Shown here in pieces: positions 32,425 through 36,606 of a DNA stretch of 64,000 nucleotides (positions within the stretch are counted from its first letter, which is position 1; every line of letters begins with the position of its first letter). The DNA comes from Actinomycetota bacterium (GTDB lineage Bacteria; Actinomycetota; Thermoleophilia; Solirubrobacterales; 70-9), in the NCBI GenBank assembly GCA_005885405.1, contig VAYN01000018.1, positions 87,596 to 151,595 on the forward strand. The letters run 5' to 3'. Position numbers and translations under genes: made by a program. Below the pieces are notes generated by a model. It was not told where the DNA came from. It worked only from the letters and a program-made list of their open reading frames with translations, and did not search any database.

Positions 32425-33897
32425 ATGAAAAGGAGGTTGATGATCGCCGCTCCGGTAGCCGCGATCGCCTCGCTGGTATTGCCAGGTGCCGCCTTCGGCG
32501 CCGAAGCGCCGGCGGTCCTGGAAACCCCGGAGGCCAGCATCAATGCGATGTGGGTGATCGTCGCCGCCTGCTTGGTGATGTTCATGCAGGCCGGGTTCCT
32601 GCTCTTGGAGGTCGGGTTCTCCCGGGCCAAGAACGCGGGTGCAGGCGTGGCCAAGGTATTGGTGAACTTCTCGATCGCCTCGCTCTGTTACTGGGCGTGC
32701 GGCTTCGCGCTGGCGTTCGGTGGGCTCGGTGAGATCGCCGGGACGCACGGGTTCTTCCTCGACGTCGGCTCTTCGGTCGAAGAAGCCGGGGCGAGCATCC
32801 CCTTCGTCGAAACGTATTCGATCAGTCCCGCCGCGTTCATGTTCTTCCAGTTCGTCTTCTGCGCGGTCTCCCTGGCGATCGTCTGGGGCGCGACCCTGGA
32901 GCGGATCAAGTTCGGCGCCTACGTGATCTACGCGATCATCTTCAGCGCGGTTCTGTACCCGATCCTCAGCCACTGGATCTTCGGCGGTGGCTGGCTGCAG
33001 GTGAACGTCGGGATGCAGGACTTCGCTGGCTCCACGGTGGTCCACCTGATCGGCGCGACCGGGGCCTTCGCGGCGCTGCTGTTGCTCGGCCCGCGGATCG
33101 GCAAGTACACGAAAGACGGCAAACCGCGGGCGATCCCGGGGCACTCGATGCCGCTGGTCGGCCTCGGCGTGCTGATCCTCTGGCTCGGCTGGTTTGGGTT
33201 CAACCCGGGCTCGACGCTCGGCGCGATCGGCGGTCGCTTCGCTGAAGTCGTCGTCGTCACCAACCTGGCCGCCGCCGCTGGCGTAGTCGCCGCGGTCGCG
33301 ATCATGTTCCTGAAGACGAAAACGATCGACATCGGCATGGCCGGCAACGGCGCGATCGCCGGTCTCGTTGCGATCACCGCGCCCTCCGGCTACGTCGAGT
33401 ATTGGGCCGCTCCGATCATCGGCGCGATCGCCGGCGTGGTCGTCGTCTACGGCGTCCTCGCGATTGAGAAGCTGATCGACGACCCAGTCGGTGCCCTTTC
33501 GGCCCACGGCCTCGCCGGTATCTGGGGCACGCTCTCGTGCGGCATCTTCACCTCGCCGCGCCTAGCGGAACTGAACGAAGTCGGCGATCCGGGCCTCTGG
33601 TACAGCGGCTCGTTCCACCAGCTCGGCGCTCAGGCGCTGGGTGTCGGCGTCGCCTTCGTCTGTGTGTTCGTCGTCTCCTACGCGATCTTCTTCCTGATCA
33701 AGAAGACGATCGGGTTGCGGGTGACGGCGGAGGAAGAGGATGCGGGGCTCGACATCTCAGAGCACGGGATGTACGGGTACCCGGAGCAGTTCATCCCCCA
33801 GCCCGAGTACTCCACGGGTGCGCAGCTCGGCGGTACCTCGACGGCCCCAGCGGCCGCGAGACCGGCGGTCAGCACCCCGATGACCAGCGAGTCCTAG
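32425..33897 (+). CDS. amt: Ammonium transporter (Amt/MEP family)
   Basis: 490 aa with a cleavable signal-like N-terminus (APVAAIASLVLPGAAFGA) and 11 TM helices. The pore signatures FMQAGFLLLEVGFSRAKNAG, DFAGSTVVHLIGATGAFAALLLLGPRIGKY and SAHGLAGIWGTLSCGIF contain the twin-His and Phe gate neighbourhood. It imports ammonium at low external concentration. The C-terminal tail (GLDISEHGMYGYPEQFI) contains the conserved cytoplasmic stretch that docks P-II, and a Ser/Ala/Thr-rich extension follows. GGAGG lies 6 bases before the ATG. glnK follows 13 bp later. Confidence 0.96.
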   Translation: MKRRLMIAAPVAAIASLVLPGAAFGAEAPAVLETPEASINAMWVIVAACLVMFMQAGFLLLEVGFSRAKNAGAGVAKVLVNFSIASLCYWACGFALAFGGLGEIAGTHGFFLDVGSSVEEAGASIPFVETYSISPAAFMFFQFVFCAVSLAIVWGATLERIKFGAYVIYAIIFSAVLYPILSHWIFGGGWLQVNVGMQDFAGSTVVHLIGATGAFAALLLLGPRIGKYTKDGKPRAIPGHSMPLVGLGVLILWLGWFGFNPGSTLGAIGGRFAEVVVVTNLAAAAGVVAAVAIMFLKTKTIDIGMAGNGAIAGLVAITAPSGYVEYWAAPIIGAIAGVVVVYGVLAIEKLIDDPVGALSAHGLAGIWGTLSCGIFTSPRLAELNEVGDPGLWYSGSFHQLGAQALGVGVAFVCVFVVSYAIFFLIKKTIGLRVTAEEEDAGLDISEHGMYGYPEQFIPQPEYSTGAQLGGTSTAPAAARPAVSTPMTSES

Positions 33898-33910
33898 GAG
33901 GCATGAGCGC

Positions 33911-34279
33911 ATGAAAAAGATAGAGGCGTACATCCGCCACGAGGCGTTCGAGCCGATCCGGACCGAGTTGCTCGACAAGGGGTTCCCATCCCTGTCGATC
34001 ATCGAGGCCAAGGGCTCGGGCCGTCAGAAAGGCATCGTCGAGCGGTACCGCGGCTCGACGCTGACCGTCAACGTCCGTCCGAAGATCAAGCTCGAGGTGG
34101 TGATCGAGGACAAAGACAAGGACATCGTCGTCGAGGTCATCCTCAGGCACGCTCGCACGGGCGAGGTCGGCGACGGCAAGATCTTCGTGCTGCCGGTGGA
34201 GGAGGCGATTCGCATCCGCACCGGGGAGGACGGCCAGTCCGTTCTTCAACTGCACGAGGAGTCGGAGATCCCCACCTAA
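33911..34279 (+). CDS. glnK: Nitrogen regulatory protein P-II
   Basis: 122 aa. The P-II fold is clear: MKKIEAYIRHEAFEPIRTEL, the B-loop TGEVGDGKIFVLPVEEAIRIRTGE, and the T-loop base GRQKGIVERYRG. The T-loop tyrosine modified by uridylylation (Tyr51 in E. coli GlnB) is replaced: the segment reads YRGSTLTVN instead of YRGAEYMV. It should still bind ATP/ADP and 2-oxoglutarate and gate the adjacent Amt, but cannot be modified at that position. No glnD is nearby. The gene ends in a strong terminator, so amt-glnK is a two-gene operon. Confidence 0.95.
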   Translation: MKKIEAYIRHEAFEPIRTELLDKGFPSLSIIEAKGSGRQKGIVERYRGSTLTVNVRPKIKLEVVIEDKDKDIVVEVILRHARTGEVGDGKIFVLPVEEAIRIRTGEDGQSVLQLHEESEIPT

Positions 34280-34308
34280 CTCCGACGTTCCCCCAGAACA
34301 AGAGCCAG

Positions 34309-34332
34309 CGGGGCGGCCTCCGGGCCGCCCCG
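34309..34332 (+). terminator. Terminator of the amt-glnK operon
   Basis: Perfect 10-bp stem CGGGGCGGCC/GGCCGCCCCG with a TCCG loop, followed by TTTGT. Confidence 0.75.
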
Positions 34333-34345
34333 TTTGTCTATTGAG

Positions 34346-34448
34346 GGACGGAGGGGATACCCCTCGCCAAAGACCGTCGCGCAGCTAATCGGACTTGTGC
34401 TGCCGACGTGACTTCTTGAGCCTTTGTCGAGGGGTATCCCCTCCGTCC
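34346..34448. repeat. 103-bp inverted-repeat element between glnK and the MerR-cyclase gene
   Basis: Two 27-bp arms (34346-34372 and 34422-34448) match in inverted orientation in 26 of 27 positions, separated by 49 bp. Each arm also contains its own 15-bp palindrome: GAGGGG-ATA-CCCCTC on the left and GAGGGG-TAT-CCCCTC on the right. It is therefore either a pair of operators or a short mobile palindromic element. It lies 48 bp before the MerR-cyclase gene. Confidence 0.75.
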
Positions 34449-34495
34449 TGCGAGCCGGGGCAGCTCTCCGCTTTTAAGAGAGTTAGCCTCGCCCT

Positions 34496-35683
34496 ATGCC
34501 CGATCAGCGGATTTCCCTTGGTGAGGCTGCCCGGCGGTCGGGGGTGCCGGCGAGCACGCTTAAACGGTGGGCCGAAGAGAAGGTCGTGCCGGTGCGGAAA
34601 GGGCGCTGGACCGCGGCGGCGGCGGCGCAGGCTCGGGTGGTGTCGCGGATGCGGGAGCGGGGGTACTCGCTGGAGGACCTGAAGAGCGCCGGCAAGGAGG
34701 GGCGGCTCGCCTTCGGCTTCACCGAGGAGCTCTTCTCCGGCTCACAGGAGACCTACTCGATCGAGGAGGCGGCGGAAGAGACGGGCCTCGAGCCGGAGCT
34801 GGTCGAGCGGATCCTTGTGATTCTCGGGACGCCGCTTGGGCAGCGCGAGCTGAACAAGGACGACCTGGCGGCGCTGCGCCACTGCGCCCGCGTCCTCGCC
34901 GCCGGCTTTCCGCTCGTCGCCTTCCTCCAGCTGGTGCGCGTGTACGCGCAGTCGATGCGGCGGATCGCCGACGCCGAGGTGCGCCTCTTCCACCTCTACG
35001 TCCACGAGCCGATGATCCGCGACGCGATCCCCGAGCTGGAAATGGCCGAGGAGATGGGGGAGCTCGCCGCCGACATCCTGCCGCTGGCGGCGCCGCTGAC
35101 CGAATACCTGCACGAGCGCTACCTGCGCTTCTTCGTCGAACAGGACGTGGTCGGCCACATGGAGGCCGGCGCGTCGATGGACACCGCCGAAATCGCCCTC
35201 GGCCACGTCAACGTCACCCTCTGCTTCATCGACCTCACCGGCTTCACCCGCTACACCGAGGAGGAGGGGGACATCGAGGCGCTCGACGTGGTCGAGAACT
35301 TCGTCGCCACGGTCGAAGCGACGATGCCGCGGGAGGCGACGATCGTGAAGACGATCGGCGACGAGGTGATGGTCGTCTCGCCGGACCCGACCTCCTTGAC
35401 CGAATGGGCGGTCGAGTTCCTCGCCCGCTTCCCGCAGCGCCCGCAGCCGCGGGTCGGGATCCACTACGGCGATGCCGTCTACCGCGACGGCGACTACTTC
35501 GGCAGCCAGGTCAACCTCGTCCACCGGGTCGTCAACCGGGCTCTGGCCGGGGAGGTGCTTGTCACCGACGCGGTCTGCGGTGCAATCGCCGCCAGCGAAC
35601 GCCTCGAGTTCGAGCCGATCGGCGAGGTCAGCCTCAAGGGATTCCCGACCCCGACCGCGCTCTTCGTCGTCCGCGGAGCATGA
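34496..35683 (+). CDS. MerR-type HTH / class III adenylate cyclase fusion
   Basis: 395 aa. Residues 5-70 are a MerR-like winged helix (ISLGEAARRSGVPASTLKRWAEEKVVPVRKG). Residues about 85-130 hold a second HTH-like segment (YSIEEAAEETGLEPELVERIL). A helical region resembling regulatory domains of actinobacterial cyclases follows. From about 230 there is a class III cyclase domain: FIDLTGFTRYTEE (metal Asp), KTIGDEVMVVS (adenine Lys, second Asp), and the transition-state Asn/Arg in FGSQVNLVHRVVNRA. The catalytic residues look intact, so it should make cAMP. TAGCCT lies 6 nt before the ATG. The stop overlaps the tilS start (ATGA). A protein that could both bind DNA and make a second messenger is unusual. 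Confidence 0.88.
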   Translation: MPDQRISLGEAARRSGVPASTLKRWAEEKVVPVRKGRWTAAAAAQARVVSRMRERGYSLEDLKSAGKEGRLAFGFTEELFSGSQETYSIEEAAEETGLEPELVERILVILGTPLGQRELNKDDLAALRHCARVLAAGFPLVAFLQLVRVYAQSMRRIADAEVRLFHLYVHEPMIRDAIPELEMAEEMGELAADILPLAAPLTEYLHERYLRFFVEQDVVGHMEAGASMDTAEIALGHVNVTLCFIDLTGFTRYTEEEGDIEALDVVENFVATVEATMPREATIVKTIGDEVMVVSPDPTSLTEWAVEFLARFPQRPQPRVGIHYGDAVYRDGDYFGSQVNLVHRVVNRALAGEVLVTDAVCGAIAASERLEFEPIGEVSLKGFPTPTALFVVRGA

Positions 35684-36606
35684 GCGCGGCCGAGCTCTTG
35701 GCGCGGGTCGAGGCGGGTGGCCTCCTCTCCGGGCCGGAGCCGGTCCTGGTGATGCTCTCCGGCGGCCGCGACTCGGTCTGCCTGCTCGACCTGGCGGTGC
35801 GGGCGCGGGGTGCGGAGGCGGTGGGCGCCCTGCACGTGAACTACGGACTGCGGGAGGAGGCGGACGGGGACGAGGCGCACTGCGCGCGGCTGTGCGAAGA
35901 GCTCGGGGTGGCGCTGAAGATCGTGCGCGCAGTGCGGAGGGAGGACGCCGGCAACCTCCAGGCTTGGGCGCGCGAGCAACGCTACGCGGCGGCCGCTCGC
36001 CTGGCGGAGGAGCGCGACGCCGTGACCGCCAGCGGCCACACCGCCGACGACCAGGTCGAGACGATCCTCTACCGGCTCGCTTCGTCTCCGAGTCGGCGGG
36101 CGCTGCTGGGGATGCGGCCGCGCGAGGGCCGCCTGGTGCGGCCGCTGCTCGGCACTACCCGCGCCGAGACCACCGCCTACTGCGAGGAGCGTGGGCTGGC
36201 CTGGCGCGACGACGCCTCCAACGAGGAGAGTGATTACAAGCGCACCCTCGTCCGCCGCGACCTCGTCCCGCAGCTCGAGCAGGTCCATCCCGCCGCGAAG
36301 GAGAACGTGCTGCGGACGGCGGCGCTGCTGCGCGAGGAGGCCGAGCTGCTCGACTCGCTTGTCGACGCCGAGCTGGCGGCGGGGGAGGGGACGATCTCCC
36401 AGCAGCGCTTCGGCGATCTCCATCCGGCGCTGCGCCGCCTCGTCCTCCAGCGTCTCGCCGACGAGGCCGCCGGCCGCCCGGTCGCCGGCGCTGCCCGCTT
36501 CGCCGAGCAGGTCGCCGGCCTCAGTCGCGGCGGCGCAACCCTCGACCTCGGCGGCGGCGTCCGCGCCGTCCTCGAGAAGGGTGTCCTTCGCGCGGAGCGC
36601 CCGTAG
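35680..36606 (+). CDS. tilS: tRNA(Ile)-lysidine synthase
   Basis: 308 aa, the short form without the C-terminal domains of E. coli TilS. The PP-loop is VLVMLSGGRDSVCLLDLA. LHVNYGLREEADGDEAHCARLCEELG and the signature TASGHTADDQVETILYRLA follow. It converts C34 to lysidine in tRNA-Ile(CAU), using ATP and lysine. It starts at ATG 35680, overlapping the cyclase stop (ATGA); the track's longer frame is a shadow. hpt follows, as in Bacillus. Confidence 0.94.
   Translation: MSAAELLARVEAGGLLSGPEPVLVMLSGGRDSVCLLDLAVRARGAEAVGALHVNYGLREEADGDEAHCARLCEELGVALKIVRAVRREDAGNLQAWAREQRYAAAARLAEERDAVTASGHTADDQVETILYRLASSPSRRALLGMRPREGRLVRPLLGTTRAETTAYCEERGLAWRDDASNEESDYKRTLVRRDLVPQLEQVHPAAKENVLRTAALLREEAELLDSLVDAELAAGEGTISQQRFGDLHPALRRLVLQRLADEAAGRPVAGAARFAEQVAGLSRGGATLDLGGGVRAVLEKGVLRAERP

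What the first reader, a model, noticed from the sequence alone, without database searches (positions are those of the whole stretch)
34496..35683. Putative DNA-binding adenylate cyclase beside the ammonium module
Seen: a MerR-like winged helix and a second HTH at the N-terminus, and an apparently complete class III cyclase domain in one protein. The stop overlaps tilS (ATGA). Inference: DNA occupancy, and perhaps signal binding, could directly gate cAMP synthesis, linking nitrogen state to cAMP.
Basis: partly seen in the sequence, partly recalled or inferred. Interest (0 to 1): 0.62.

Follow-up and report, generated by a model that had tools for sequence, protein, structure and literature searches.

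The report
MerR-headed Rv1264-type adenylyl cyclase
This gene encodes an enzyme that very probably makes the signal molecule cAMP and carries a well-preserved DNA-binding head of the MerR kind, a combination kept throughout one order of soil bacteria and tied to a housekeeping gene cluster rather than to ammonium uptake.

Summary
The 395-residue protein has a MerR-type winged helix (res. 6-67), a second degenerate winged helix (85-139), long helices (140-226) and a class III cyclase domain with all six catalytic/specificity residues (D246 K285 D289 D333 N340 R344), invariant in 79 relatives. Residues 39-205 match the Rv1264 regulatory domain (Pfam Ad_Cy_reg), so it is a cytosolic Rv1264-type adenylyl cyclase with a MerR HTH added, or never lost. 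All 76 relatives tested have the same three domains. Full-length members were found only in the order Solirubrobacterales.

HTH1 is basic, conserved and under purifying selection. HTH2 is acidic and probably does not bind DNA.

The nitrogen link is not supported. amt-glnK sits upstream in only 12 of 65 assessable relatives, all in one subclade with repeated losses, while tilS follows in 71 of 76 and ftsH in 58 of 60. The cyclase has its own, probably leaderless, promoter behind a glnK terminator.

The 34346-34448 inverted repeat is not a cyclase operator. It is one of seven copies in this genome of a gene-3'-end hairpin family with a conserved core and diversified, compensating arms.

That DNA gates cAMP synthesis is untested.

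The parts
34496..35683 (+). MerR-headed Rv1264-type class III adenylyl cyclase, 395 aa (ORF with stop)
34484..34489 (+). -10 hexamer TAGCCT, 6 nt before the ATG: probable leaderless promoter
   Evidence: TANNNT lies at -12 to -15 from the start in 33 of 74 relatives; about 0.2 expected from the window's background rate
34511..34696 (+). HTH1: MerR-type winged helix, residues 6-67, basic, conserved recognition helix T21-L22-x-R24-W25
34748..34912 (+). HTH2: second MerR-like winged helix, residues 85-139, acidic; shared with the Rv1264 regulatory domain
34913..35173 (+). Two long helices, residues 140-226 (probable dimer and signalling helices), with conserved H166, H170, E171, P172, H206, H221
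35204..35677 (+). Class III cyclase domain, residues 237-394
35231..35233 (+). D246, first metal-binding aspartate
   Evidence: invariant 79/79
35348..35362 (+). K285 (adenine-specifying) to D289 (second metal aspartate), KTIGD
   Evidence: invariant
35492..35527 (+). D333 (adenine-specifying), N340 and R344 (transition state)
   Evidence: invariant 79/79
35680..36606 (+). tilS, overlapping the cyclase stop by ATGA; first gene of the conserved tilS-hpt-ftsH neighbourhood
34307..34334 (+). Intrinsic-terminator-like hairpin after glnK, separating amt-glnK from the cyclase
34346..34448 (+). Dispersed hairpin element (27-nt arms, conserved core); not a cyclase operator
32425..34279 (+). amt (32425-33897) and glnK (33911-34279): clade-specific neighbours, not conserved partners

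Best explanation
It is a cytosolic, dimeric class III adenylyl cyclase of the Rv1264 type that keeps a working MerR-type DNA-binding domain at its N-terminus. Shown by sequence: the three-domain order, the complete catalytic set with the K/D pair that selects ATP, the conserved basic HTH1, the acidic HTH2, and the conserved place at the head of tilS-hpt-ftsH. Inferred: the protein dimerises through the cyclase domains and the long 140-226 helices, the HTH2/helix region is the signal-responsive, autoinhibiting switch as in Rv1264, and HTH1 tethers the dimer to DNA at sites still unknown. The cyclase then works as a DNA-located enzyme whose activity and DNA binding are coupled through the same helices. 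The cAMP could be read by the CRP-like protein encoded in this genome (L149).
For: Pfam MerR_1, Ad_Cy_reg and Guanylate_cyc all above curated cut-offs, and found in 76 of 76 relatives. Rv1264 holoenzyme is the best sequence and fold match over the whole length after residue 41; the N-terminal model matches Rv1264N and then, more weakly, MerR regulators including DNA-bound HiNmlR, CadR, CarH and RacA. Catalytic hexad invariant. HTH1: W25 79/79, R24 and T21 78/79; mean net charge +5.0 against -5.2 for HTH2; dN/dS 0.07-0.20 against five relatives. In Rv1264-type paralogues the match begins at residues 19-61, mostly 39-48, that is mostly just after the HTH1 helices and wing. tilS follows in 71 of 76 and ftsH in 58 of 60 assessable loci. 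CRP-like receptor candidate in the genome.
Against: No DNA site was found: the upstream regions share a -10 hexamer but no clear operator. The wing of HTH1 is short and lacks the usual GYR arginine in most members; mean wing charge is about zero. Model confidence is good per residue (pLDDT 88) but the relative domain placement is uncertain (pTM 0.54), and no dimer could be modelled. MerR fold matches have weak E-values (0.02-0.1), although with probabilities of 0.9-1.0 for many. No activity data exist.
Confidence: 0.6

Rival explanations
1. HTH1 is only a structural part of the autoinhibitory domain. The protein works like Rv1264 (a signal- or pH-sensing cyclase) and never binds DNA.
For: Rv1264 works without this HTH; in a wider set of actinobacterial relatives the corresponding segment is neutral or acidic (net charge 0 to -8) and no longer scores as MerR in Pfam; the wing is reduced.
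Against: In this order the recognition helix and positive charge are kept in nearly all members, HTH1 is more conserved than HTH2 (53% against 40% mean pairwise identity) and under strong purifying selection.
Confidence: 0.27
2. It is mainly a transcription regulator of its own cluster (tilS-hpt-ftsH and the cyclase's own promoter), with cAMP as a second output.
For: Near-universal linkage to tilS and ftsH across the order; a conserved promoter directly before the cyclase. In B. subtilis a TilS-HprT complex activates ftsH transcription (PMC8152036), so this neighbourhood is already known to be regulated from within.
Against: No conserved operator upstream; a probable leaderless promoter at the gene needs no extra regulator; conserved order can reflect co-transcription alone.
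Confidence: 0.2
3. One reading: the cyclase couples nitrogen state (Amt-GlnK) to cAMP, with the 34346-34448 inverted repeat as its DNA site.
For: Adjacency in this genome and in 12 relatives; the repeat lies about 35 bp upstream of the cyclase -10 box.
Against: amt-glnK is missing in 53 of 65 assessable loci including the nearest relative; the tree needs 7 label changes inside one subclade; a glnK stump next to an intact cyclase; a terminator between glnK and the cyclase; the repeat is a dispersed element with 7 copies at other genes' 3' ends.
Confidence: 0.05
4. The cyclase domain is inactive and acts only as a dimerisation or nucleotide-sensing module.
For: None beyond the lack of an assay.
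Against: All six catalytic and specificity residues invariant in 79 relatives; dN/dS of the domain 0.21-0.39.
Confidence: 0.03

Closest known systems
Rv1264, pH-sensing autoinhibited adenylyl cyclase of M. tuberculosis (PDB 1y10, 1y11, 2ev1-2ev4)
   Same: Ad_Cy_reg domain followed by class III cyclase domain; same catalytic set; full-length sequence and fold match.
   Different: Rv1264 lacks the first HTH and wing; the match starts at residue 41. The His at Rv1264 position 192 (a pH-sensor candidate, from memory) is Phe212 here. The conserved FHLYVHEP...EQDVVGHME segments are not in Rv1264.
Rv0386 / Rv1358 / Rv2488c, LuxR-HTH plus cyclase homology domain proteins of mycobacteria
   Same: A class III cyclase joined to a DNA-binding HTH (PMC3938503, PMC3466318).
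   Different: LuxR-type HTH with an ATPase; order and HTH family differ; reported as restricted to Mycobacterium.
MerR-family transcription regulators (e.g. HiNmlR, CadR, CarH, RacA head domain)
   Same: HTH-wing-helix-helix fold and recognition helix type; the long helix after HTH2 resembles the MerR dimer helix.
   Different: Two MerR-like units in tandem, shortened wing, and an enzyme in place of an effector-binding domain.
Wider actinobacterial Ad_Cy_reg cyclases with a cryptic N-terminal winged helix (L106, L107, L109, L111, L118, L123)
   Same: Same overall layout; the FH-x-Y-V-E-x-P segment is present in several.
   Different: First winged helix neutral or acidic and not recognised as MerR by Pfam in those scanned.

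Membership tests
Class III adenylyl cyclase | Two metal-binding Asp, adenine-selecting Lys/Asp, transition-state Asn/Arg | tested here: met
   D246, D289, K285, D333, N340, R344 invariant in 79 sequences
Class III adenylyl cyclase | Cyclase fold and curated profile score | tested here: met
   PF00211 45.8 bits against cut-off 21.9; best fold matches are Rv1264 and Ma1120
Class III adenylyl cyclase | ATP to cAMP conversion as a dimer | not testable with these tools
   Needs an enzyme assay
Rv1264 / Ad_Cy_reg cyclases | Ad_Cy_reg domain N-terminal to the cyclase domain | tested here: met
   PF16701 42.0 bits against cut-off 28.6; 76/76 relatives; 1y10 match over residues 41-393
Rv1264 / Ad_Cy_reg cyclases | Histidine at Rv1264 position 192 (pH sensor, recalled from the literature) | tested here: not met
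   Rv1264 H192 aligns with Phe212. This feature concerns the pH response, not membership of the fold family
Rv1264 / Ad_Cy_reg cyclases | Autoinhibition by the regulatory domain | not testable with these tools
   Needs assay of full-length against isolated cyclase domain
MerR family | MerR_1 profile above curated cut-off at the N-terminus | tested here: met
   44.5 bits against 21.6; 76/76 relatives
MerR family | Conserved basic recognition helix and Arg-bearing wing | tested here: inconclusive
   Recognition helix conserved (T21, R24, W25), HTH1 basic; wing short and mostly without the GYR arginine
MerR family | Binding to a dyad in a promoter with long spacer | tested here: inconclusive
   No conserved dyad found in the upstream regions; its targets may lie elsewhere
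CHD-LuxR cyclases (Rv0386 type) | LuxR-type HTH and ATPase domain | tested here: not met
   No such Pfam matches

The most novel reading that the evidence does not exclude
DNA is the allosteric ligand: HTH1 bound to specific sites switches the Rv1264-type dimer between inhibited and active states, so cAMP is made only by cyclase sitting on (or released from) particular promoters. Rv1264's own regulatory domain would then be a decayed tandem MerR regulator that lost its first DNA-binding half.
Probability: 0.2. Interest if true: 0.8.

Novelty: new variant of a known kind. Interest (0 to 1): 0.47.

Why it matters
A DNA-binding head on the best-studied type of soluble bacterial cyclase would allow a direct test of whether DNA occupancy can control second-messenger synthesis. 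It also suggests where the unusual Rv1264 regulatory domain came from: a tandem MerR-type regulator. The held literature describes cyclases fused to LuxR-type HTH domains but none fused to a MerR domain. The gene is kept in most of an order of largely uncultured soil bacteria next to tilS-hpt-ftsH, which points to a housekeeping or stress role that, as far as the held literature shows, has not been studied.

Tried and rejected
Nitrogen link through amt-glnK: tested by synteny and a tree; clade-specific with losses. The inverted repeat as operator: rejected, dispersed element. Conserved operator upstream of the cyclase: k-mer and dyad inspection found only the -10 hexamer and GC-rich terminator words. 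HTH2 as a second DNA-binding unit: unlikely, acidic. MerR head in other actinobacterial Ad_Cy_reg cyclases: only a cryptic winged helix, no Pfam MerR over cut-off. Sequence search of residues 1-65 alone against solved structures: no match. Literature: 10 searches; no MerR-cyclase fusion described in the open-access papers held; the main Rv1264 structure papers are not in the library, so statements on pH sensing rest on citing papers and memory. For the hairpin element: no Rfam match in the window stretch, no tRNA, no Y1 transposase in the genome.

Full report
What is there. The ORF at 34496-35683 (+) encodes 395 residues. Pfam finds MerR_1 at residues 7-63, Ad_Cy_reg at 39-205 and Guanylate_cyc at 238-386, all above their curated cut-offs. 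The best solved relative is the mycobacterial cyclase Rv1264 over residues 41-393 (E 2.8e-24). The protein is therefore an Rv1264-type soluble cyclase with about 40 extra N-terminal residues, and those are the helices and wing of a MerR-type HTH. In the class-wide search, Rv1264-type paralogues match the family profile mostly from about residue 40 onward. The own genome has one such paralogue as well (G000:C11), plus five other class III cyclases.

The cyclase. D246 and D289 (metal), K285 and D333 (adenine choice), N340 and R344 (transition state) are invariant in 79 homologues. The residue roles are established knowledge of class III cyclases. The K/D pair predicts ATP as substrate. The catalytic domain has dN/dS 0.21-0.39. 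Loss of activity is very unlikely, but no assay exists.

The two HTHs. AlphaFold2 with 76 family sequences gives pLDDT 88 and pTM 0.54: two HTH units, a 36-residue helix (140-175), a 47-residue helix (180-226) and the cyclase fold. HTH1 and HTH2 align end to end without gaps over 75 columns (single-comparison E 3.6e-5 and 5e-6, probability 44-70%), which suggests a tandem of MerR-like units. Foldseek with the N-terminal 178 residues returns the Rv1264 regulatory domain first and then MerR regulators with weak E-values but high probability, some bound to DNA. HTH1 keeps T21, R24 and W25 in 78-79 of 79 sequences, has mean net charge +5.0 (window +9), and has dN/dS 0.07-0.20. HTH2 has mean net charge -5.2 and dN/dS 0.32-0.50. 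I conclude that HTH1 probably binds DNA and HTH2 probably does not. The short wing is the main reason for doubt.

A possible signal site. Residues 158-177 (ADAEVRLFHLYVHEPMIRDA) and 215-223 (EQDVVGHME) are among the best conserved outside the active site, and the FHxYVExP part recurs in several of the wider actinobacterial cyclases but not in Rv1264. This may be a ligand or dimer site; inference only. Rv1264 His192 corresponds to Phe212, so the Rv1264 pH mechanism need not apply.

Distribution. In 199 genomes of the class, 35 carry a full-length relative at E < 1e-120, all in the window's own order; other orders give only cyclase-domain or weak matches. The nearest labelled homologues are Solirubrobacterales. 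Elsewhere in the phylum, Ad_Cy_reg occurs in 67 of 297 genomes, some with a cryptic, acidic or neutral N-terminal winged helix that Pfam does not call MerR.

Neighbourhood. tilS follows the cyclase in 71 of 76 assessable loci and ftsH in 58 of 60; glnK precedes it in 12 of 65. On the protein tree every amt-glnK case falls inside one 21-row subclade, with 7 changes of the label. The nearest relative L001 lacks amt-glnK, and L003 (same genus) has only a glnK stump before an intact cyclase. Other amt genes sit elsewhere in these genomes. The nitrogen link is thus a local arrangement, not the family's function. In B. subtilis a TilS-HprT complex activates ftsH (PMC8152036), which makes regulation inside this cluster a fair alternative, still untested.

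Transcription. glnK is followed by an intrinsic-terminator-like hairpin. The cyclase start is preceded by TAGCCT at -12, and a TANNNT hexamer stands at -12 to -15 in 33 of 74 relatives, where about 0.2 are expected from the window background. This is the layout of a leaderless transcript. The ATGA overlap with tilS is real but most relatives have a gap of roughly 20-250 bp, so translational coupling is not a conserved feature.

The inverted repeat. The 27-nt arms at 34346-34372 and 34422-34448 are not a cyclase operator. Six more copies (76-84% identical) lie elsewhere in the genome, all just downstream of a gene on the same strand. A covariance model finds 29 high-scoring copies (above 80 bits) in 7 of 12 genomes of the genus, with a gap down to below 60 bits for the rest. 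Across 20 aligned copies (19 from the genus and one lower-scoring copy from the same family, L211) the core RRCCGTYGCGCAGCTGG...GAGCYT is conserved while the arms change, with both-side compensation at 23 of 28 pairs and almost no G-U intermediates. Of 27 copies, 25 have a detectable upstream gene; in 20 of these it is on the same strand, mostly ending 0-40 bp before the element. The family looks like gene-3'-end hairpins (terminator or mRNA-end elements) or insertions into such hairpins. The lack of G-U pairs suggests constraint on both DNA strands or a DNA-level origin. It deserves its own study.

Mechanism and verdict. Best supported: a DNA-tethered Rv1264-type cyclase (0.6). DNA-gated catalysis is possible (0.2) but untested. 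Novelty: a new variant of a known kind. Cyclases joined to a LuxR-type HTH are known in mycobacteria (PMC3938503, PMC3466318); a MerR-Rv1264 fusion was not found in the open-access literature held.

Noticed in passing
34346-34448; copies at G000:C3:16615, C4:86279, C4:97208, C7:45989, C23:8434, C30:82925; relatives L195-L212, L227-L241: A family of about 105-nt hairpin elements with a conserved core (RRCCGTYGCGCAGCTGG...GAGCYT) closed by 25-28 bp arms that differ between copies but stay complementary (23 of 28 pairs with both-side changes, almost no G-U). Seven copies here, 29 strong copies in 7 of 12 genomes of the genus, mostly 0-40 bp after a gene's stop on the same strand and sometimes facing each other between convergent genes. 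No Rfam match.
   Followed up: partly
34484-34489 and the same position in relatives: Probable leaderless promoter: TANNNT (often TAGCCTCG) 6-9 nt before the cyclase start in 33 of 74 relatives.
   Followed up: partly
L003:2380-2450 (same as L134, same genus): Stump of glnK directly upstream of an intact cyclase gene: amt-glnK was deleted there and the cyclase stayed.
   Followed up: yes
L065, L067, L071, L073: Contigs titled Bifidobacterium breve MAG carry Solirubrobacterales-type cyclase-tilS-ftsH loci and group with Solirubrobacterales in the tree: probably mislabelled or misbinned records.
   Followed up: no
G000:C11:31119-32207 (L099): The same genome encodes a second, HTH-less Rv1264-type cyclase with a strong Ad_Cy_reg match (E 9e-41), so both forms coexist.
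   Followed up: partly
residues 158-177 and 215-223 of the cyclase (34967-35026, 35138-35164): Highly conserved His/Glu-rich helix segments, partly shared with a wider set of actinobacterial cyclases but not with Rv1264: candidate ligand or metal site.
   Followed up: no
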